The notes beneath the pieces were generated by a model. The model had not been told where the DNA came from. It was given only the letters and a program-made list of their open reading frames with translations, and did no database searches. Below are positions 1 to 31,700 of a stretch of DNA of 31,700 bases, piece by piece (position 1 is the stretch's first letter; every line of letters starts with the position of its first letter). Source of the DNA: a virus; IMG/VR virus record IMGVR_UViG_3300048597_000646, positions 1 through 31,700 of that record; one strand, given 5' to 3'. The position numbers and the translations under genes are program-made.

Positions 1-207
1 CTAAGATGCTCGGCTGATCTTAAAGCGATCAATCCAGCTGATCACCTCATCAGGATACCACCGCCGCGAGCGCTCGCTAGCTGATGGCAGCAGAATCGGG
101 CGGGGGAAACTTGGAATCTTCACCAACTTATCGCGCACATGGCGCGGCTTTTTTTGGATGTAATTGGCGATATCTGTAATCGTCCACAGCTTATCTGTCG
201 CACTCAT
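1..207 (-). CDS. AlpA/excisionase-like small HTH protein (68 aa)
   Basis: A short protein shaped like AlpA or MerR-type excisionases. A winged helix-turn-helix spans about residues 7-60: 'TITDIANYI' opens the first helix, a basic stretch (KPRHVRDK) follows, and the end 'RWYPDEVISWID' is typical of AlpA-like proteins. In this family such proteins bind att or operator DNA and control excision or late activation; that role is inferred here. It is the last gene of a three-gene leftward operon, and its ATG overlaps the upstream stop as ATGA, so translation is probably coupled. The stop codon is the first three bases of the window. It lies far from the integrase gene at 13504, which is unusual for an excisionase, so a regulatory role is equally possible. 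Confidence 0.75.
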   Translation of the reverse strand: MSATDKLWTITDIANYIQKKPRHVRDKLVKIPSFPRPILLPSASERSRRWYPDEVISWIDRFKISRAS

Positions 208-513: not shown

Positions 514-542
514 ATATTACCGAAACGGTAATTTAGTGTCAA
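514..542 (-). promoter_or_regulatory. Leftward PL-like promoter with embedded operator
   Basis: On the minus strand a perfect -35 box TTGACA (542-537) is followed by a 17-base spacer and a -10 box TAATAT (519-514). The predicted start near 507 gives a short leader before the ATG at 484. The perfect palindrome at 517-531 overlaps the -10 box and spacer, so a bound repressor would block the promoter. This predicts that the AlpA operon is silent in lysogens. Confidence 0.7.
517..531. promoter_or_regulatory. Phage operator, perfect palindrome (left cluster, site 1)
   Basis: TTACCGAAACGGTAA is a perfect odd-length palindrome. It shares the TACC-N5-GGTA pattern with sites at 554-566, 2639-2651 and 2673-2685, and approximately at 2614-2626. 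It overlaps the leftward promoter. Binding by the S24 repressor and/or the Cro-like protein is inferred from the shared motif and its placement at both divergent promoter regions. Confidence 0.75.
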
Positions 543-552
543 CAGAGATTTG

Positions 553-580
553 TTGCCAAATTGGTATTTTTTACTTTATC
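553..580 (+). promoter_or_regulatory. Weak candidate rightward promoter with operator variant (554-566)
   Basis: TTGCCA (553-558), a 16-base spacer and TTTATC (575-580) form a weak rightward promoter candidate ahead of the gene at 661. The sequence TGCC-AAATT-GGTA at 554-566 matches the operator pattern with one changed outer base. Its centre is 36 bases from the neighbouring operator at 517-531. The operator match is better supported than the promoter match. Confidence 0.4.
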
Positions 581-660: not shown

Positions 661-837
661 ATGGATGATATTGATTATAAGAATCTTCAAAATGAGATTC
701 GATATTTATCTCAGAAAGTAAAAAGACTTGAAATAAAGGTAGAGAATAAAACACTTAGCTGGCAGGGCGGCTTGTGGATAAGTTTCTGGTGTGCATTCCT
801 GCTCTTATCGCTCTCTAAATGTGCGGAGTATTTGTAA
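661..837 (+). CDS. Small coiled-coil plus transmembrane protein (58 aa)
   Basis: The start at 661 is chosen because AAAGGGG lies just upstream; the in-frame ATGs at 550 and 610 have no comparable site, and the first lies at the operator. Residues 1-35 are charged and heptad-like (NLQNEIRYLSQKVKRLEIKV), suggesting a short coiled coil. A hydrophobic segment at about residues 37-52 is a likely membrane anchor. The gene converges with, and overlaps by 33 bases, the last gene of the leftward repressor operon, which also encodes a single-pass membrane protein. The function is unknown; a membrane-acting early or immunity factor is a guess from context. Confidence 0.6.
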   Translation: MDDIDYKNLQNEIRYLSQKVKRLEIKVENKTLSWQGGLWISFWCAFLLLSLSKCAEYL

Positions 838-1119
838 TATCTCTTTAGTTTCCGTACTAACGGTGCTTATTTTATCGCCTATCATTAAGGGAGTAATATA
901 AGCGTACAGCGCACAAGTTATTCCTAAAATTGGCAGGCATATAGCTATTAACCCTTTATAGCTAACATAATGATTCAAATCATCTTTATTGATAGATTGA
1001 ACTTCAAGTGCTTTAATGCGCTCAATGACATTCTGATGTCGCTCGTCGTGATTTTTGTTGGTAGCATCCATCAAGCTTTGTAAGGCTGCTGACTGTGATT
1101 CCGTTTTTGATTCTGTCAT
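805..1119 (-). CDS. Membrane protein at the end of the repressor operon (104 aa)
   Basis: I recognise no family. The ATG at 1119 is preferred over an in-frame GTG at 1125 because GTAGG sits about 5 bases upstream of the ATG. Residues 1-55 are polar and probably helical. One hydrophobic segment spans about residues 56-78 (GLIAICLPILGITCALYAYITPLMI), followed by a charged tail. It is the fifth and last gene of the leftward run beginning with the repressor, six bases after the previous stop. Its place in a repressor-linked operon with lipoproteins suggests an envelope function in lysogens such as superinfection exclusion; this is inference. Confidence 0.6.
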   Translation of the reverse strand: MTESKTESQSAALQSLMDATNKNHDERHQNVIERIKALEVQSINKDDLNHYVSYKGLIAICLPILGITCALYAYITPLMIGDKISTVSTETKEILQILRTFRER

Positions 1120-1125
1120 GAACAC

Positions 1126-1302
1126 CTACTTTTCATCCACCAGCTTTTTAATCATAGCTATGGCCTCATCAGTAAGCTTGTCCATGTCAGATAATGCTTT
1201 ATTGTTTTCTGGTGTGATGGTGGATATTTTTCCAATTAATATTCGCTGTGCAATTTGAATTTGTAGGAATTTTATCATTAACTGATGTAATTTGTAGTCC
1301 AT
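1126..1302 (-). CDS. Small helical protein (58 aa) in the repressor operon
   Basis: This gene fills the gap between the second lipoprotein gene and the membrane protein gene. The ATG at 1302 lies three bases after the preceding stop, with CAGGTAAGTT upstream as a modest ribosome-binding site. The protein is mostly amphipathic helix, with a hydrophobic-basic N-terminal half and an acidic/lysine C-terminal half (MDKLTDEAIAMIKKLVDEK), and no clear membrane segment. I recognise no family. Tight packing with same-strand neighbours is the main reason to call it real. Confidence 0.55.
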   Translation of the reverse strand: MDYKLHQLMIKFLQIQIAQRILIGKISTITPENNKALSDMDKLTDEAIAMIKKLVDEK

Positions 1303-1305
1303 AAC

Positions 1306-1596
1306 TTACCTGATCAAATTTTTATTACACTCAATAAGAAGCTTCATTATTTTGCCTTCTTTGCCGTAATCTTCATATGCCCTACTTATTTCCTTATAAC
1401 CATTCGGGCAGACTTTCTGGGCTTCAATATCTATGGCCATTTTGGTTTCGGCTACTAGAAAGCGTCCGTTTTCTACCAGATCAATGCCCAGTGGCGGCGT
1501 AACGGTTATTTGTTTTCTGCCATTGCCTACATCCTGCACGGTTGCATTGGCGCAGGCTGCCAGCCCGAATACAAAAATAATACATATTCTGTTCAT
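1306..1596 (-). CDS. Small predicted lipoprotein (96 aa)
   Basis: The N-terminus reads MNRICIIFVFGLAAC, a short hydrophobic signal ending in an LAAC lipobox, so Cys15 is the likely lipidated residue after signal peptidase II cleavage. The mature part contains a probable beta-rich stretch (KQITVTPPLGIDLVENGRFLV) and two more cysteines near residues 63 and 89 that could pair. It follows the BamE-like lipoprotein gene by six bases. No named family is recognised. It would be anchored in the inner or outer membrane. Because it is co-directional with the repressor it is probably made in lysogens, and is therefore a candidate conversion or exclusion protein. Confidence 0.7.
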   Translation of the reverse strand: MNRICIIFVFGLAACANATVQDVGNGRKQITVTPPLGIDLVENGRFLVAETKMAIDIEAQKVCPNGYKEISRAYEDYGKEGKIMKLLIECNKNLIR

Positions 1597-1602
1597 AAAA
1601 CC

Positions 1603-2001
1603 CTAATCCTGTATTGTAGACAAATAATTCCCTTCAAAATACAGGTAGTTTCTGTATTGGTTTAATCCATAAACCCACTGCTCATGGCTACCATATCTAG
1701 ATGTTGTAGCATTAATATGGCTTGGATTTCCCCAGGCGGCTATTGCTTCACATTTAGTCATACCAACTGCAACACGTCCGTTTTTTACCGCCACTGACAT
1801 TTCATCCTGCACCTCTTGTCTGCGCTTTAACTCTTGATCTACAAGCTTAGAATTATGGAATTTATTACCATATGCCCTGCAAAGGTCTTTTGTCGCAATG
1901 TTTTTAATTTCTTCGGCGCTCATTTTTGATATTGCATAAGGTGAGTTTGCACAACCAACAAGCAAGTTAGTAACGAATAAAGCCACAATCAGCTTTTTCA
2001 T
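1603..2001 (-). CDS. BamE/SmpA-like fold lipoprotein (132 aa)
   Basis: The start at 2001 (MKKLIVALFV) is preferred over 2016 because it follows ATGGGGGG by a few bases and gives a classic lipoprotein signal ending in LVGC (Cys17). Residues about 80-130 match the SmpA/OmlA/BamE pattern: 'VGMTKCEAIAAWGNP', then an aromatic 'EQWVYG' and 'YLYFEGNYL'. In that family this small alpha/beta domain binds outer-membrane partners. It is the first gene after the repressor, with a 15-base gap. An interaction with a host envelope receptor or the Bam machinery is plausible but inferred. The domain match is by eye. Confidence 0.75.
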   Translation of the reverse strand: MKKLIVALFVTNLLVGCANSPYAISKMSAEEIKNIATKDLCRAYGNKFHNSKLVDQELKRRQEVQDEMSVAVKNGRVAVGMTKCEAIAAWGNPSHINATTSRYGSHEQWVYGLNQYRNYLYFEGNYLSTIQD

Positions 2002-2015
2002 AAACCCCCCATTCA

Positions 2016-2603
2016 TTAATTTGGCCTGATATTTTTCACCTTTGATGCCCAGAGCAATTTCTGGTCAATTATTGGTTTATAGGCTTCGTTAAACGAAAGC
2101 AAATGATAATGATGAGGCAGGCTGCCAGACTTCACCACTTTAAGCATCATGCTTTCATCGGCGCACTTCACTACGCATAGTTCATTTAAGCAATCAGAAG
2201 GCACGCCATCGGCGTAGCGTTCATAAAAAATCAGCCAGCCAGATTTAAAGGGCTTCATGCTATCGCCACGGATGCGCACTGCTACGCAATCATTACAATT
2301 TTCTGGTGTATCCACCATTTCAAAGCCATCGCCTTTGGCGTGATCATCGTAAGGATAAAAGCGCTCGCCTGCGCCAATATCGCCAACAACCGGCGATTGG
2401 CGGCTTGCGGCTGCATCAGCTATTATATCACTTGGCTCAACCCCCAGAGCGTTGGCATATTTTTCAAGCTCTTGAGTGCGCAACCCTCTTTCACCAGTTT
2501 CTTTCCTAAAAATAGTGACGGTACTAACGCCTAGCCTGTCAGCCAATTGCTCGCGGCTAAGCCCCCTGCTTTCTCTTATCTTCATAATGTTGTTTTTGAC
2601 CAT
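2016..2603 (-). CDS. Prophage repressor, HTH plus S24 (LexA-like) protease (195 aa)
   Basis: The N-terminal domain (residues about 8-62) is an XRE helix-turn-helix ('LSREQLADRLGVSTVTIFRKETG'). The C-terminal domain has the S24 self-cleaving layout: a candidate Ala78-Gly79 cleavage bond in 'GDIGAGE', the serine nucleophile Ser115 in 'GDSMKP', and the general-base Lys155 in 'MMLKVV'. These spacings resemble LexA and lambda CI, so RecA-stimulated induction is expected. The start at 2603 avoids the 25 extra residues of the longest frame, which would run through the operators; no strong ribosome-binding site is seen, and Met7 is an alternative. It heads a five-gene leftward operon and is divergent from the Cro-like gene. 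Confidence 0.9.
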   Translation of the reverse strand: MVKNNIMKIRESRGLSREQLADRLGVSTVTIFRKETGERGLRTQELEKYANALGVEPSDIIADAAASRQSPVVGDIGAGERFYPYDDHAKGDGFEMVDTPENCNDCVAVRIRGDSMKPFKSGWLIFYERYADGVPSDCLNELCVVKCADESMMLKVVKSGSLPHHYHLLSFNEAYKPIIDQKLLWASKVKNIRPN

Positions 2604-2613
2604 ATTGCGACCA

Positions 2614-2685
2614 TACCATTTTGGTTCACAATAAAAACTACCAACTCGGTAATTTATGTCTTGACTTGTTATTACCATTTCGGTA
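2614..2685. promoter_or_regulatory. Operator cluster between repressor and cro (three sites)
   Basis: Three copies of the phage operator lie in the divergent promoter region. TACC-ATTTT-GGTT is at 2614-2626, TACC-AACTC-GGTA at 2639-2651 and TACC-ATTTC-GGTA at 2673-2685. Centres are 25 and 34 bases apart. The last overlaps the cro promoter -10 box, and the first lies just upstream of the repressor start codon. The arrangement resembles the three-part right operator of lambda, suggesting differential binding by repressor and Cro. I could not recognise a convincing leftward repressor promoter. Confidence 0.75.
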
Positions 2686-2689
2686 TTTT
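2661..2689 (+). promoter_or_regulatory. Rightward PR-like promoter, predicted leaderless start
   Basis: TTGACT (2661-2666), a 17-base spacer and TATTTT (2684-2689) form a good sigma-70-type promoter. Six bases after the -10 box is the A of the cro ATG (2696), so the message is predicted to start at or near the start codon. The operator at 2673-2685 covers the spacer and -10 box. Confidence 0.7.
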
Positions 2690-2695
2690 CTCCTT

Positions 2696-2881
2696 ATGTT
2701 TTTAGAAAATTACATAAAAGATAACGGGTTAACATACGAGTCATTTGGAAAGCTGATCGGCGTTTCTGATGCCGCTGTGTCTCGTTACGTAAAAGGCAAA
2801 AGGAAACCTAAGCCGTCCATCATGAGTAAAATAATTAAGATTACTCAAGGCAAGGTTACGGCAAACGATTTCTATAAATAA
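2696..2881 (+). CDS. Cro-like HTH regulator (61 aa)
   Basis: This small DNA-binding protein is divergent from the repressor. Residues 13-38 form a helix-turn-helix ('YESFGKLIGVSDAAVSRYVKG') followed by a basic arm (KRKPKPS). In lambdoid phages such a protein competes with the repressor for the same operators and commits the phage to lytic growth. The start at 2696 is chosen because upstream in-frame ATGs fall inside or before the promoter and operators. No ribosome-binding site precedes it (the six bases are CTCCTT), which fits a leaderless mRNA. Confidence 0.85.
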   Translation: MFLENYIKDNGLTYESFGKLIGVSDAAVSRYVKGKRKPKPSIMSKIIKITQGKVTANDFYK

Positions 2882-8121: not shown

Positions 8122-9591
8122 ATGACTTGGCTATTTCAGCCGATACCCGATGGCGCACAGCTGCTGGCGGTGACGACTACCCCAGTAGAAAATTCGCTGG
8201 ATGTGCGTTGGAATACCACTGGGAATGTCGGAAATAATCTGGATTTGAGGTATAATACCGTTGCTACGGTAATGAACGGCAGTGATTTGCGCTGGCATAT
8301 TAACAGCGCGGTGGATTCAAGCATTGATATACGCTGGAATCTTCTTAGCGCAATCACACAAGATGTGGATTTGCGTTACAATATTGTTGCCAATGTCAAT
8401 AGCAGCATTGATGTACGCTGGAATACCATAAGCACGGTAATGCAGGCAGTGGACGTGCGCTGGAATCTGCTAAATTCGGCCATGCAAACGCTCGATGCAA
8501 GATGGAACATCATCAGCCAGATTGCCCAGGATAGCGATTTGCGATGGAACCTCGCAAGCGTGGTGGCTCAAGATACCGATATACGCTGGAATCTGACAAA
8601 TGAAATCAACCAGCAGCTGGATGTGCGTTGGAACCTTACCAGCCAGATCGCACAAAATAGCGACTTACGGTGGAATTTACTTAACACTGCAATGCAAGTG
8701 CTGGATGTGCGCTGGAACCTTATCAACCAGATATCGCAAAATATTGATATCAGATGGAATCTAAGCAACCAAATTGCCCAGGATAGCGATTTGCGATGGA
8801 ACCTAGCAAGTGTGGTGGCGCAGAATAGTGACTTGCGTTGGAATATGGTATCATCCACGCAGGCTGACTCCACGCTTTCGTGGGATATGGCGGGAGTGGT
8901 GAGTGCTGATTATGAATTCAGGTGGAATGTACTGAATGGAGTAACGCAGGATGTTGATATTCGTTTTAATATTTTCAGTCTTATTCAGCAGAATGTGGAT
9001 GCACGGTGGGATATTGACGCGCTTGTAACTCAGCAAACCGATCTGCGTTATAATGTGCTAAGTAGCACGATGCAAACGCTCGATGCCATATGGAACATCA
9101 GCAGCCTGATTGCCCAGAATAGCGACTTGCGTTGGAATATAGCTACGTTGGTGGGGCGAAATAGTGACACCAGGTGGAATCTAATTGAAAGCATGCAGGC
9201 TGATTCCACACTTTCGTGGAATATGGCTGCGATGGTGAAGCAATCGGCAGATTTACGCTGGGATGCACTGAATGATGTGCATCAATCCATGCAGATCATA
9301 TGGCATCTGCTAGATGAGATTTTAACGGTAAATACAAGCGTATTACTACAATGGCAGATATTAAACGCTGTGAATGCGCGTATAGCTTTGCGCTACGCTA
9401 TTGAGGGCGAGGAAACCTTTGTGGATGGTGAGCGGCGGATTGATGCCGATGAGGAAAACCGCACGCTATTTTTGCCTGTAGAGAATCGTAAAATAAGACT
9501 CTCCCGAACGGGGGAGAGCCGCAGCATAATCATTCCAAGCGTGAGCCGAGCCATGCACATAAGCGATGACCGGCATCTGGATATTAACTGA
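8122..9591 (+). CDS. 14-residue tandem repeat virion protein (489 aa)
   Basis: After a 26-residue head, residues 27-390 are 26 back-to-back 14-residue units with the core D-(L/I/V)-R-W-N-(L/I) and a second half such as SQIAQNS. Two or three decayed units follow. The C-terminal 80 residues are different: charged, with 'ESRSIIIPSVSRAMHISDD'. A strand per repeat around the Arg-Trp-Asn core would suit a beta-solenoid or an elongated trimeric fibre; this is inference. Near-identical units 252 and 336 bases apart show recent internal duplication. I cannot name a family. Its neighbours, including a fibre-adaptor-like gene, point to a tail fibre or whisker. Confidence 0.7.
   Translation: MTWLFQPIPDGAQLLAVTTTPVENSLDVRWNTTGNVGNNLDLRYNTVATVMNGSDLRWHINSAVDSSIDIRWNLLSAITQDVDLRYNIVANVNSSIDVRWNTISTVMQAVDVRWNLLNSAMQTLDARWNIISQIAQDSDLRWNLASVVAQDTDIRWNLTNEINQQLDVRWNLTSQIAQNSDLRWNLLNTAMQVLDVRWNLINQISQNIDIRWNLSNQIAQDSDLRWNLASVVAQNSDLRWNMVSSTQADSTLSWDMAGVVSADYEFRWNVLNGVTQDVDIRFNIFSLIQQNVDARWDIDALVTQQTDLRYNVLSSTMQTLDAIWNISSLIAQNSDLRWNIATLVGRNSDTRWNLIESMQADSTLSWNMAAMVKQSADLRWDALNDVHQSMQIIWHLLDEILTVNTSVLLQWQILNAVNARIALRYAIEGEETFVDGERRIDADEENRTLFLPVENRKIRLSRTGESRSIIIPSVSRAMHISDDRHLDIN
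8200..9291 (+). repeat. Tandem 42-bp coding repeats (26 units)
   Basis: Each unit encodes 14 residues with no insertions or deletions over 26 units. Sequence identity between units varies: the unit at 8521 is nearly repeated at 8773 (six units later), and the one at 8860 at 9196 (eight units later). This pattern fits duplication of multi-unit blocks by unequal recombination or slippage. Confidence 0.9.
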
Positions 9592-12130: not shown

Positions 12131-12760
12131 TTATGCGTTATCATTTGGAGGGGCATATTGTTCTGGCCGCTCAGCGCACAACTCTCCACTAAAAGAATAA
12201 ACTTCCTTATTAAATAAGCACTTTTCCAGCCTGCCTTGCGTGATTTCAAATAGTGGTGATAATTCGCGTGCTGACCCAAATCTTTTGGGCGGCGCAATCA
12301 CATGAAACTGTTTTTTTGGTTGCAACCTTTTTGCTGCTTTCATCGCTGGCACAATGTCAGTATCGGCGCTTATCAAAATGTAGCGTTCATGCCTATCCAT
12401 GCAGGCATCTTCAACAATTTGAATTGCGATATTTACATCCGTTTCTTTTTCTTCTGGTTTCTGCCATTCATGACGGCATTTAAGGCACTTTACTGGTTTG
12501 TGCTTGAATTTACCTATGTGCGTTTTAACACCCACAGCATGCAATGCATCGACATATTCACGGTGGCGAAGGAATACTTCATTATCCCATGTAGCGTATG
12601 CAGAAAAATAATGAACAGCGAACAGCTTTTCATCTTCCCTTAAAAAGGATTCTGAGAGTTTGTGCAGATCCAGCCATTTTAACCAAGGTTTGTTTAAGCC
12701 TCTAATCGCATAGTACAGATTAAAGCCATCAATATAAACCGCCACTCGTTTCACATACAC
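12131..12760 (-). CDS. NYN-domain (PIN-like) putative RNase with zinc knuckle (209 aa)
   Basis: The fold is that of NYN/LabA proteins. The first strand carries 'VAVYIDGFNLYYA' (Asp11, Asn14), a later helix has 'KETDVNIAIQIVEDA' (Asp108), and 'YILISADTDIVPAM' gives Asp133 and Asp135. These acidic residues form the metal site of PIN-type RNases. A CLKC pair (Cys92, Cys95) is inserted, perhaps half of a zinc site. It is the only leftward gene in the right-hand 29 kb, so it looks like a moron expressed on its own. A defence, anti-host or RNA-decay role is possible. The weak GGGGTG ribosome-binding site and the hairpin leader suggest controlled expression. Confidence 0.85.
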   Translation of the reverse strand: MYVKRVAVYIDGFNLYYAIRGLNKPWLKWLDLHKLSESFLREDEKLFAVHYFSAYATWDNEVFLRHREYVDALHAVGVKTHIGKFKHKPVKCLKCRHEWQKPEEKETDVNIAIQIVEDACMDRHERYILISADTDIVPAMKAAKRLQPKKQFHVIAPPKRFGSARELSPLFEITQGRLEKCLFNKEVYSFSGELCAERPEQYAPPNDNA

Positions 12761-12818: not shown

Positions 12819-13008
12819 GACGAACAATTTTATTGTCTCATAAAGTGAGGTAAACCGCAAGAACTATAACGCATTGAAACGCAAGAGTTATTATATTTTT
12901 TATGTATAGGATATGCTGGCTAGCGAAAAAAAATAAAAATTCCACCTCCCCTGCGGTTTTGCCGAATGTCATGTTGGCAAAATGTTGCAACCAGAGAGAG
13001 GAAATTTT

Positions 13009-13494
13009 ATGAGCGCATCAGAAAACATTAAAATGTCAATTTCAGTAGCTGGCGGTGAACCAATCCACACCGATACCAAAACATTACAGAAAGCTGCCAA
13101 GCTGGTGAAAAATTCTATTCCTAAACCACGCGGATTTCATGAGGTGGATGACGCGCCAGAAGTGGAAGCCAAGGCAGAAAAGATTTCTGAAAAATATGGA
13201 TTGCCTAAAGCGCATGTAAAAAAAGAGCTTCGCGCAGGCAGCGTTTCCGCTGAGCAATTGCGAACCATTATTCAGAGGGTGGAAAAGCTGGAGGAAGATA
13301 AGGCCGCCATTGGCGGTGATATTCGTGAGGTGCTGGCGGAGGCGAAAGGCAACGGGTTTGACCTGAAAGCCATTAAGCAGATTCTGAAAATACGGCGCAT
13401 GGATGAAAATGAACGCGCCGAGCAAACCGCAATACTGGAAACGTATATGGGTGCGCTTGGCATGCTGCCGCTGTTTGAAGGGTTAGAAGAATAG
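13009..13494 (+). CDS. GapR/DUF2312-family DNA-binding protein (161 aa)
   Basis: The start at 13009 follows AGAGAGGAAATTTT; the longer in-frame start at 12982 is not needed. Residues about 80-152 match the GapR/DUF2312 pattern closely: 'EQLRTIIQRVEKLEEDKAAIGGDIREVLAEAKGNGFDLKAIKQILKIRR', then 'EQTAILETYMGALGM'. GapR of Caulobacter is a nucleoid protein that binds overtwisted DNA ahead of replication. The present protein has about 78 extra residues at the N-terminus. It is nine bases upstream of the integrase gene, so a DNA-topology role in replication, integration or packaging is plausible. Confidence 0.85.
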   Translation: MSASENIKMSISVAGGEPIHTDTKTLQKAAKLVKNSIPKPRGFHEVDDAPEVEAKAEKISEKYGLPKAHVKKELRAGSVSAEQLRTIIQRVEKLEEDKAAIGGDIREVLAEAKGNGFDLKAIKQILKIRRMDENERAEQTAILETYMGALGMLPLFEGLEE

Positions 13495-13503
13495 GCAACG
13501 CCT

Positions 13504-14592
13504 ATGGCATACATTCAGAAGCGACTGCGAAAAAATGGCAAGGCAGCATTTATGGCTGTGGTGAGAAAAAGCGGCTTTCCTATGAAATGCAAAACTTTTG
13601 ATCGCTACGCTGATGCACGTGAATGGGCAAACATTAATGAATCCAATGTGCAGAAAGAAAAAATGGGAACAGCACTTGCCGCAAAAAACACCACGGTAGG
13701 CGAAATGATTACACGTTATCTGGATAATGTACTGGAGAGTAAGGCGGCAAAGGAAAGCTACATTAATATCCAGCGTAAGCAATTACAGTGGTGGCGCAAT
13801 AAGCTCAGAGATTTAAGGCTATGCCACCTCACTCCCTACATTATTAATGATTGCAAAGAAGAATTGGCAGGCAGGAATTTTAGCAGGCGAACGCCTGCAA
13901 CCATTAACCGCTACTTGGCGGCATTAAACCATGTGATTAATACAGCCATCAGAGAATGGGGATGGCTTGAGCAAAACCCTATCACTAAAGTGAATAAGCC
14001 AAAAGAGCCACCAGGGCGCACACGTTACCTGCTTGAGTCTGAGCTGGAAGCATTGTTATCACAATGTAAAAAGTGTGAGCGCAAACCGTTGTATTTGATT
14101 GTGCTGTTTGCGTTATCCACGGGCGCGCGCAAAAGCGAGATATTGCGATTAAAGCGTAAAGATATGGATCTGGTGCGCAATGTGGCCGTTGCTTATGACA
14201 CTAAGAATGGTGAACCACGCCAGTTATACTTATCGGGTAATCTATCACGGCTGCTTGCAGACCATATAGATAAGCATCAGCACCGCAGCACACAATGGGT
14301 ATTTCCCGCGAATCGCGGTAAGAGTTATGTGAACATTGAAGCGGAATGGCGTGCAGCACTCAAAGCAGCGGGTGTAAAAGATTTCAGGTTTCACGACTTG
14401 CGCCACACCAGTGCTAGCTACATGGCTATGAATGGTGCAAGTCCTGCTGATATTGCGGAAGCGCTGGGGCACAAGAGCTATGACATGGTGAAGCGATACA
14501 CGCACCTATCCACCACGCATGTGGCAAAGGTGGTTACAAGTATGAGTGAGAAGTTTTTAACACAGCAAGGGGAGCGGGAGGCAAGCCTATGA
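13504..14592 (+). CDS. int: Tyrosine integrase (362 aa)
   Basis: The C-terminal catalytic domain has the full tyrosine-recombinase set: Arg209 (TGARKSE), Lys234 (DTKNGEPR), His297 and Arg300 (HDLRHT), His323 (LGHKS) and Tyr332 (KRYTHLS). The N-terminal ~60 residues resemble an arm-binding region ('MAYIQKRLRKNGKAAFMAVV'), and residues 65-165 the SAM-like core-binding domain. Length is normal for the family. It catalyses integration between attP and attB. The gene lies mid-segment with phage genes on both sides. It starts nine bases after the GapR-like gene. Confidence 0.95.
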   Translation: MAYIQKRLRKNGKAAFMAVVRKSGFPMKCKTFDRYADAREWANINESNVQKEKMGTALAAKNTTVGEMITRYLDNVLESKAAKESYINIQRKQLQWWRNKLRDLRLCHLTPYIINDCKEELAGRNFSRRTPATINRYLAALNHVINTAIREWGWLEQNPITKVNKPKEPPGRTRYLLESELEALLSQCKKCERKPLYLIVLFALSTGARKSEILRLKRKDMDLVRNVAVAYDTKNGEPRQLYLSGNLSRLLADHIDKHQHRSTQWVFPANRGKSYVNIEAEWRAALKAAGVKDFRFHDLRHTSASYMAMNGASPADIAEALGHKSYDMVKRYTHLSTTHVAKVVTSMSEKFLTQQGEREASL

Positions 14593-30929: not shown

Positions 30930-31386
30930 AAAGAAAATAACAGTTGGTGTTTCCGCAGGCAGTATCGCTCTTGCCGCTCCACTTATTGCCTACTGGGAAG
31001 GGTACAGCGGCAAGGCTTATTATGATGTAGTGGGCATCCCCACACAATGCTACGGTGACACCAAGCACGTTGAATTTGATAGGATAAAAAGTAAGGAAGA
31101 ATGCCAGCTGCTACTGCGCGAAGAAATATTATTATACGCACGCGCTGTAACCAGCGCTATTCACACACCTCTTGGCGATAATCAAAAAGCCGCCTTTACC
31201 TCATGGACTTACAATGTAGGCATTGGTGCAATGCAGAAATCTACTTTGGTTAGAAAAGCAAACGCTGGTGATCTGCGCGGCGCGTGCAACGAACTGCTAC
31301 GTTGGAATAAAGCAGGTGGTGTTTCGTGGCGGGGATTAACCAAAAGGCGTGAAGCGGAGCGTGATTTATGCTTACAGGGCTTATAA
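30919..31386 (+). CDS. Endolysin, GH24 lysozyme with SAR-like N-terminus (155 aa)
   Basis: The start at 30919 gives a basic N-terminus (KKK) followed by a weakly hydrophobic Gly/Ala/Ser-rich stretch (about residues 8-25), the form of a signal-anchor-release sequence. The catalytic triad of T4-type lysozymes is in place: Glu27, Asp36 and Thr42 with the 8- and 5-residue spacing. Cys44 and other cysteines may rearrange after release. 'FTSWTYNVGIGAMQKSTLVRKANAG' and 'GLTKRREAERDLC' are typical of R-type lysozymes. It degrades peptidoglycan at the end of infection. Confidence 0.92.
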   Translation: MSVKKKITVGVSAGSIALAAPLIAYWEGYSGKAYYDVVGIPTQCYGDTKHVEFDRIKSKEECQLLLREEILLYARAVTSAIHTPLGDNQKAAFTSWTYNVGIGAMQKSTLVRKANAGDLRGACNELLRWNKAGGVSWRGLTKRREAERDLCLQGL

Positions 31387-31700
31387 AGTTTATTGGTTTC
31401 ATCGGTAAATATTGGCAGGCATTTGCCGCCATTGGTTTTGGTGCCTTCTGTTTTATTTGGGGTTGGCAATGGAGCAGCAACCAATGCGAGGCAGAAAAAA
31501 AAGCCGCCGCCTTGCAATTTGCGGTGCAAGCAAACCAGAAATCATTGGCATACGAAGAAACCATCAAGCGCCTGCATGAAAAAAGCCGCAGCAACCGCGA
31601 AAGGATTATTTATGAAACCAATAAGCCTGATTATCATTGCATCATCCCTGCTAACGGGGTGCAGCTTTATCAATCCGCCTTATCCAGTGATTCCCGCTAA
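31368..31700 (+). CDS. Rz: Inner-membrane spanin Rz-like (110 aa)
   Basis: The N-terminus has one membrane segment (about residues 16-34, 'YWQAFAAIGFGAFCFIWGW'), followed by a charged helix ('EAEKKAAALQFAVQANQKSLAYEETIKRLHEKSRSNRERIIYET') that would span the periplasm. It overlaps the endolysin gene by 19 bases and ends at the last base of the window. With the nested Rz1 gene it forms the complex that fuses inner and outer membranes in lysis. Confidence 0.85.
   Translation: MLTGLIKFIGFIGKYWQAFAAIGFGAFCFIWGWQWSSNQCEAEKKAAALQFAVQANQKSLAYEETIKRLHEKSRSNRERIIYETNKPDYHCIIPANGVQLYQSALSSDSR
31612..31700 (+). CDS. Rz1: Rz1-like outer-membrane spanin lipoprotein, nested in Rz and cut by the window end
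   Basis: In a different frame inside Rz, ATG at 31612 follows AAAGGA and begins a signal sequence ending in the lipobox LLTGC (Cys17). After it comes a proline-rich run (NPPYPVIPA), typical for Rz1. The gene continues beyond base 31700, so its end is unknown. Its overlap with Rz is the classic lambda arrangement. Confidence 0.8.
   Translation, partial: MKPISLIIIASSLLTGCSFINPPYPVIPA

What the first reader, a model, noticed from the sequence alone, without database searches (positions are those of the whole stretch)
805..2603. Repressor-linked operon with two lipoproteins and a membrane protein: candidate exclusion or conversion system
Five leftward genes are packed with gaps of 3-15 bases behind the repressor: repressor, BamE-like lipoprotein, second lipoprotein, small helical protein, single-pass membrane protein. 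This is the rexAB position of lambda, normally active in lysogens. Seen directly: order, spacing, lipoboxes (Cys17 and Cys15), membrane segment. Established: lipoproteins next to repressors in other phages act in superinfection exclusion. Inferred: these four proteins form an envelope-located exclusion or conversion complex. I recognise no described system with this set.
Basis: partly seen in the sequence, partly recalled or inferred. Interest (0 to 1): 0.8.

Follow-up and report, generated by a model that had tools for sequence, protein, structure and literature searches.

The report
Lipoprotein genes behind a prophage repressor
A dormant virus of an alphaproteobacterium carries, in one operon with the repressor that keeps it dormant, two small lipid-anchored envelope proteins and a membrane protein that most likely help the infected cell shut out other viruses; the layout follows a known type, but the protein set itself appears new and untested.

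Summary
Five leftward genes lie head to tail at 805-2603: an S24-type phage repressor, two lipoproteins (lipobox Cys17 and Cys15), a 58-aa helical protein and a one-span membrane protein. They are the only two lipobox ORFs in the whole window, and 0 of 1000 shuffles reproduce the tandem ORFs. New here: a 17-bp palindrome (ATTACCGAAACGGTAAT) sits in the spacer of a strong leftward promoter (516-532) and of the cro promoter (2671-2687), with a third copy at 2637-2653. The excisionase-side genes and cro are therefore probably repressed in a lysogen, while the four extra genes follow the repressor with no operator of their own. Lipoprotein 1 ends in a BamE/OsmE/BLIP-like fold (AlphaFold plus Foldseek). 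Exported proteins with this domain sit beside the tape-measure gene in Moraxella phages and in another prophage; in Moraxella this is exactly where HK97 keeps its exclusion gene gp15. They also sit beside XRE regulators and a restriction system in integrative elements. Lipoprotein 2, the small protein and the membrane protein have no convincing relatives, and a four-protein complex is unsupported. Best reading: a lysogen-expressed, envelope-located superinfection-exclusion cargo, lipoprotein 1 most likely the effector (about 0.5). Unproven without expression and plating data.

The parts
2016..2603 (-). CI/LexA-type repressor, HTH_3 plus Peptidase_S24 (sequence shows GDSM and an Ala-Gly site, as in self-cleaving repressors)
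   Evidence: Pfam and PHROG matches; relatives annotated LexA/CI repressor in alphaproteobacterial phages
1603..2001 (-). lipoprotein 1, 132 aa, lipobox LVGC (Cys17, Ala at +2), helical N-terminal part, C-terminal BamE/OsmE/BLIP-like domain (residues about 75-132)
   Evidence: full-length relatives L028 (39% identity) and L024 (24%)
1306..1596 (-). lipoprotein 2, 96 aa, lipobox LAAC (Cys15, Ala at +2); no convincing relative
   Evidence: no acceptable hits
1126..1302 (-). 58-aa probable helical protein; coding likely but not proven
   Evidence: 3-base gap to lipoprotein 2 and ribosome-site-like AGGT; codon score not decisive; no family
805..1119 (-). one-span membrane protein, 104 aa from ATG (106 aa from GTG 1125), polar/helical N-terminal half
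   Evidence: hydropathy; no relatives
2671..2687 (.). probable operator ATTACCATTTCGGTATT inside the spacer of the cro promoter TTGACT-17-TATTTT (2661-2689, + strand)
2637..2653 (.). probable operator ACTACCAACTCGGTAAT, between cro promoter and repressor start
516..532 (.). probable operator ATTACCGAAACGGTAAT, near-perfect palindrome, inside the spacer of leftward promoter TTGACA-17-TAATAT (542-514)
552..568 (.). weak fourth operator-like site GTTGCCAAATTGGTATT, 36 bp from the 516-532 site (the two repressor-side sites are 34 bp apart)
   Evidence: score 13.0, next best in window 9.4
2697..2881 (+). Cro-like HTH protein, start of the rightward operon
   Evidence: HTH_3 E 3e-9 for the ORF 2621-2881
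1..207 (-). small HTH protein, excisionase-like, under the 542-514 promoter
   Evidence: phrog_4996 E 4.7e-14; weak excisionase families

Best explanation
The operon is the lysogenic (maintenance) transcription unit of an alphaproteobacterial siphophage prophage. The repressor binds the ATTACC-GGTAAT palindromes, shutting the rightward cro promoter and the leftward excisionase-side promoter, while its own leftward transcript continues through four accessory genes, so that these are made in the lysogen. Lipoprotein 1 is lipidated on Cys17 and, with Ala at +2, probably sorted to the outer membrane; its C-terminal BamE/OsmE/BLIP-like domain acts in the periplasm as a protein-binding module. The most likely job is superinfection exclusion: it binds either an incoming phage's tape-measure/injection proteins or the periplasmic side of an outer-membrane receptor and stops genome entry. 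Lipoprotein 2 and the membrane protein are separate or auxiliary envelope cargo. Shown: gene order, lipoboxes, membrane span, operator and promoter layout, domain fold (model), domain contexts elsewhere. Inferred: repressor binding to the palindromes, expression in lysogens, outer-membrane sorting, target and phenotype.
For: Operators over both lytic-side promoters and none in the operon. Fold of lipoprotein 1 residues 68-132: pLDDT 79, Foldseek best hits OsmE 4dm5 prob 1.00 and BLIP-like 3d4e TM 0.70, viral hits named phage lipoproteins at E 1.2e-4 and 1.1e-2. In Moraxella phages Mcat32 and Mcat10 the exported relative (phrog_11546, which also matches lipoprotein 1 at E 2.5e-10) lies between tail-chaperone-region genes and the tape measure, the exact slot of exclusion moron gp15 in HK97. 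In prophage L047 it follows directly a 1485-aa ORF read here as the tape measure by size and place. L036, an integrative element, has XRE regulator + full-length relative + two exported genes. L037 has the exported pair beside XRE, a Dam-type methylase and DpnII endonuclease. A related phage G002 lacks the lipoproteins, as expected of cargo. The operon is AT-rich (38% GC against 45%). Precedents: ltp behind cI (PMC3952083), with its tape-measure link and that of gp15 cited in PMC10883804, and Llp jamming FhuA from the periplasm (PMC9586334).
Against: No expression or phenotype data. Position and fold are guilt by association: the same domain is also fused to other N-terminal parts in Bacillus-type plasmids and in apparently chromosomal proteobacterial proteins, where exclusion is not implied. 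The fold model rests on two sequences and the Foldseek PDB E-values are 0.04 or weaker. No relative has a tested function. Three of four proteins have no informative homologue.
Confidence: 0.5

Rival explanations
1. Lysogenic conversion unrelated to phages: the lipoproteins change the outer membrane (stress, grazing or host-surface traits, as lambda Bor or the host lipoprotein OsmE might) and benefit the lysogen.
For: Best fold match is the host envelope lipoprotein OsmE; the same domain occurs in apparently chromosomal proteins without a phage nearby (L024, L027, L030-L035).
Against: Repeated placement beside tape-measure genes and in an element with restriction genes favours phage-phage conflict.
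Confidence: 0.25
2. Independent morons: only one gene (lipoprotein 1 or the membrane protein) has an active role and the rest are passengers with separate histories. (This can be true together with the best explanation.)
For: Only lipoprotein 1 has relatives; partners differ in L036 and L037; no family for the other three.
Against: Very tight spacing without internal promoters or terminators above chance suggests selection for joint expression.
Confidence: 0.4
3. A Rex-like abortive-infection pair (cytoplasmic sensor plus membrane effector) rather than an entry block.
For: Same place as rexAB; a small helical protein is followed by a membrane protein with a polar, possibly coiled-coil N-terminal half.
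Against: No relation to any PADLOC model except weak matches; sizes and topology do not fit RexA/RexB (own knowledge); two lipoproteins are not part of Rex.
Confidence: 0.08

Closest known systems
TP-J34 Ltp (Streptococcus thermophilus prophage exclusion lipoprotein)
   Same: Lipoprotein gene in the lysogeny module, leftward behind the repressor, with cro divergent; made in the prophage state (PMC3952083).
   Different: Gram-positive, cytoplasmic-membrane anchored; lipoprotein 1 here is carried with a second lipoprotein and a membrane protein, and its fold matches are BamE/OsmE/BLIP-like; Ltp did not appear among the matches.
HK97 gp15 (exclusion moron)
   Same: Envelope protein of a siphophage moron; lipoprotein 1 relatives in Moraxella phages occupy the same slot between tail chaperone and tape measure.
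   Different: gp15 is a short inner-membrane protein without a lipobox; in the window the gene is in the repressor operon, not the tail cluster.
T5 Llp and Cor-type lipoproteins
   Same: Small phage lipoproteins of the Gram-negative envelope; Llp blocks its receptor from the periplasmic side (PMC9586334).
   Different: Only a signal-peptide-level match to the Cor PHROG (E 0.023, residues 6-26); no shared domain.
OsmE/BamE/BLIP-fold proteins
   Same: Helix plus four-strand sheet; Foldseek prob 1.00 to OsmE; conserved GMT...W-G-P motif resembles the BamE G-T...G-P motif.
   Different: No Pfam BamE hit; the family has its own motif (EQWVY, YLYFENG) and a different N-terminal part.
lambda rexAB
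   Same: Genes cotranscribed behind the repressor in the lysogen.
   Different: No relation in number, topology or sequence.

Membership tests
Repressor-linked exclusion lipoprotein (Ltp type) | lipobox signal peptide | tested here: met
   Cys17 and Cys15; the only two in the window
Repressor-linked exclusion lipoprotein (Ltp type) | located in the lysogeny module, same strand as the repressor | tested here: met
Repressor-linked exclusion lipoprotein (Ltp type) | sequence relation to Ltp | tested here: not met
   no Ltp-like record among phage hits of lipoprotein 1 and no such Pfam family
[quoted passage not shown]
   needs RNA-seq and infection assays; the operator layout only makes expression likely
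BamE (PF04355) / OsmE | profile match above the curated cut-off | tested here: not met
   no PF04355 hit at E up to 1; OsmE model E 0.034, 14 bits against cut-off 65
BamE (PF04355) / OsmE | BamE/BLIP fold | tested here: met
   model pLDDT 79, OsmE prob 1.00 though E 0.04; profile comparison with BamE E 2e-4, prob 45%
Cor/Llp exclusion lipoproteins | mature-domain sequence match | tested here: not met
   Cor PHROG matches signal peptide only, E 0.023
lambda RexAB | cytoplasmic RexA plus multi-span RexB | tested here: not met
   two lipoproteins and a one-span protein; one hydrophobic stretch; no Rex family match
S24 phage repressor | HTH plus S24 domain, repressor PHROG | tested here: met

The most novel reading that the evidence does not exclude
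A family of mobile, exported BamE/BLIP-fold proteins, placed either behind prophage repressors or beside tape-measure genes, is a general class of phage-entry blockers that bind injection proteins or outer-membrane receptors in the periplasm, and this operon is a two-lipoprotein, one-membrane-protein version working across both membranes.
Probability: 0.2. Interest if true: 0.75.

Novelty: new variant of a known kind. Interest (0 to 1): 0.45.

Why it matters
If right, it adds a fold (BamE/OsmE/BLIP-like) to the few known envelope exclusion proteins, in an alphaproteobacterial prophage where I found no described example, and links repressor-linked lipoproteins to tape-measure-adjacent morons through one shared domain that can be tested with single-gene plasmids.

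Tried and rejected
Close relatives of lipoprotein 1, lipoprotein 2, the membrane protein, the repressor and the replication protein in IMG/VR: only one, the domain in L002. Lipoprotein 2 against phages, plasmids and 385 + 399 genomes: only weak hits (Tritonibacter plasmid E 0.06 in an unannotated stretch; genome hits E 0.003-0.009, two of them inside frames of 834 aa), not accepted. Folding lipoprotein 1 from a single sequence failed (pLDDT 41), so only the two-row domain model is used. Nearest related phages (CRP-811, CRP-821) show no annotated repressor or integrase and could not be used for synteny. The operon order was not found behind the repressors of Mesorhizobium, Paracoccus or Ruegeria phages, and no lipobox ORF was found there. 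PADLOC hits of lipoprotein 1 (E 0.003, overlapping the signal peptide) and Pfam matches of the other three were judged chance. Considered and rejected: lysis/spanin genes (the phage has an Rz-like spanin at 31368-31700).

Full report
WHAT THE WINDOW IS. The window is a whole IMG/VR record of 31,700 bases. It starts and ends exactly at stop codons, which suggests a provirus trimmed at gene borders. It encodes a siphophage: terminase, portal, protease/major head fusion, tail tube, tape measure, tail fibre J-like protein, endolysin and spanin, an integrase and a GapR homologue. The nearest TerL in a genome is 74% identical, in the Alphaproteobacteria MAG UBA3002.

THE OBSERVATION. The five leftward genes are real as described. 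Gaps are 14, 6, 3 and 6 bases (0 with the GTG start of the last gene). The two lipoproteins are the only two lipobox ORFs in the window. Tandem ORFs of this kind never arose in 1000 dinucleotide shuffles. The weakest member is the 58-aa ORF, whose codon score does not separate it from another frame. The stretch 805-2016 is AT-rich: only 2% of windows of that size in the record are as AT-rich.

REGULATION (new). A 17-bp palindrome, ATTACCGAAACGGTAAT, occurs at 516-532. Variants lie at 2637-2653 and 2671-2687, and a weak one at 552-568. The three strong sites score 22 or more; the next sites in the window score 13.0 (552-568) and 9.4. Leave-one-out ranks are 2 to 3 of all positions. In the pattern scan, 0 of 100 shuffles gave as many matches, against an expectation of 0.04. 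Two of the sites sit in the 17-base spacers of promoter-like elements: TTGACA-TAATAT leftward at 542-514, towards the excisionase-like gene 1-207, and TTGACT-TATTTT rightward at 2661-2689, towards the Cro-like gene. The number of promoter-like sites in the region is at chance level (9 found, 9.2 expected), so it is the coincidence with operators that carries weight. This is the lambda-like plan of two operator regions. No operator lies inside the operon, so the four extra genes most simply follow repressor transcription in the lysogen. That step is inferred, and so is the binding of this repressor to these sites.

LIPOPROTEIN 1. Its last 60 residues form a recognisable domain with invariant G-M, W-G, G and Y residues. 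It is shared with proteins on plasmids of Polaromonas, Priestia and Bacillus, an IMG/VR element L002, Moraxella phages and genomic elements. The model of this domain (window plus L002, pLDDT 79) is a helix followed by four strands. Foldseek finds OsmE (prob 1.00, E 0.04) and a BLIP-like protein (TM 0.70) in the PDB and named phage lipoproteins in BFVD. Sequence profiles give weak but concordant BLIP, BamE and OsmE hits. It fails Pfam BamE membership. So it has the fold but is not in the family.

CONTEXT OF RELATIVES. (a) In Moraxella phage Mcat32 the exported relative lies between a tail chaperone/tail protein pair and the tape measure, and the gene order is the same in Mcat10. In HK97 exactly this slot holds gp15, labelled a moron product and a known superinfection-exclusion protein (cited in PMC10883804). 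(b) In the prophage L047 the relative, with a signal peptide, follows directly a 1485-aa ORF that I read as the tape measure from its size and position after the tail genes; it had no PHROG hit when its C-terminal part was tested. (c) In L036, an integrative element (integrase, XRE regulator, possible replication gene), a full-length relative (39% identical to lipoprotein 1) starts an operon with two more exported proteins, divergent from the XRE gene. (d) In L037 the relative and another putatively exported protein lie beside an XRE gene and a Dam-type methylase, with a DpnII endonuclease and a PADLOC candidate defence ATPase nearby. (e) Seven or so other relatives in genomes are apparently chromosomal proteins with a different N-terminal part, a caution against a single function. 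In an evenly drawn set the domain is rare: 3 of 385 genomes of the class (E up to 1e-4) and 9 of 399 of the phylum (E up to 1e-5).

OTHER PARTS. Lipoprotein 2, the 58-aa protein and the membrane protein have no acceptable relatives anywhere searched. The claim of a four-protein complex therefore has no support. The related phage record G002 (TerL 71%) has no lipoprotein 1; its repressor is followed by one membrane protein. The lipoproteins are thus dispensable cargo, but an envelope gene behind the repressor recurs.

MECHANISM. The best-supported reading is an entry block made in the lysogen. Published precedents cover both routes: tape-measure-directed blocks (TP-J34 Ltp, HK97 gp15; PMC10883804, PMC3952083) and receptor jamming from the periplasm by a small lipoprotein (T5 Llp, PMC9586334). 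With Ala after the lipidated Cys, both lipoproteins would by the E. coli +2 rule (own knowledge) go to the outer membrane. A BamE/BLIP-type domain is a plausible protein-binding module; BLIP is a protein inhibitor. None of this has been tested for this protein.

VERDICT. Observation confirmed; interpretation partly supported. A new variant of a known kind: repressor-linked envelope cargo, with a domain not previously tied to exclusion as far as the papers searched show.

Noticed in passing
window 661-837 (+): A 58-aa ORF (coiled-coil-like, then a C-terminal hydrophobic segment) with a good ribosome site runs head-on into the membrane gene and overlaps its 3' end by 33 bases; codon score not supportive.
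   Followed up: partly
window 13504-14592 and 1-207: Integrase lies in mid-genome between tail-like genes and the terminase, far from the excisionase-like gene at the record's left end; L003 has the same GapR-integrase-terminase order. Unusual for an integrated prophage; att sites not seen.
   Followed up: partly
window 12131-12760 (-): Lone reverse-strand NYN-domain protein (Pfam E 1.6e-13), possibly another moron or defence gene.
   Followed up: no
window 8122-9591 (+): 489-aa protein built largely of degenerate protein-level repeats around DxRWNL; not detected as DNA tandem repeats.
   Followed up: partly
window 12982-13494 (+): Phage-encoded GapR-like chromosome-binding protein (Pfam E 7.8e-29) next to the integrase.
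   Followed up: no
L037 967-7139: Integrative element with DpnII endonuclease, Dam-type methylase and a PDC-S46 ATPase near exported BamE-like proteins.
   Followed up: partly
L020 4067-5003: Related phage: HTH repressor overlapped by a single-span membrane protein gene, another repressor-linked envelope gene.
   Followed up: no
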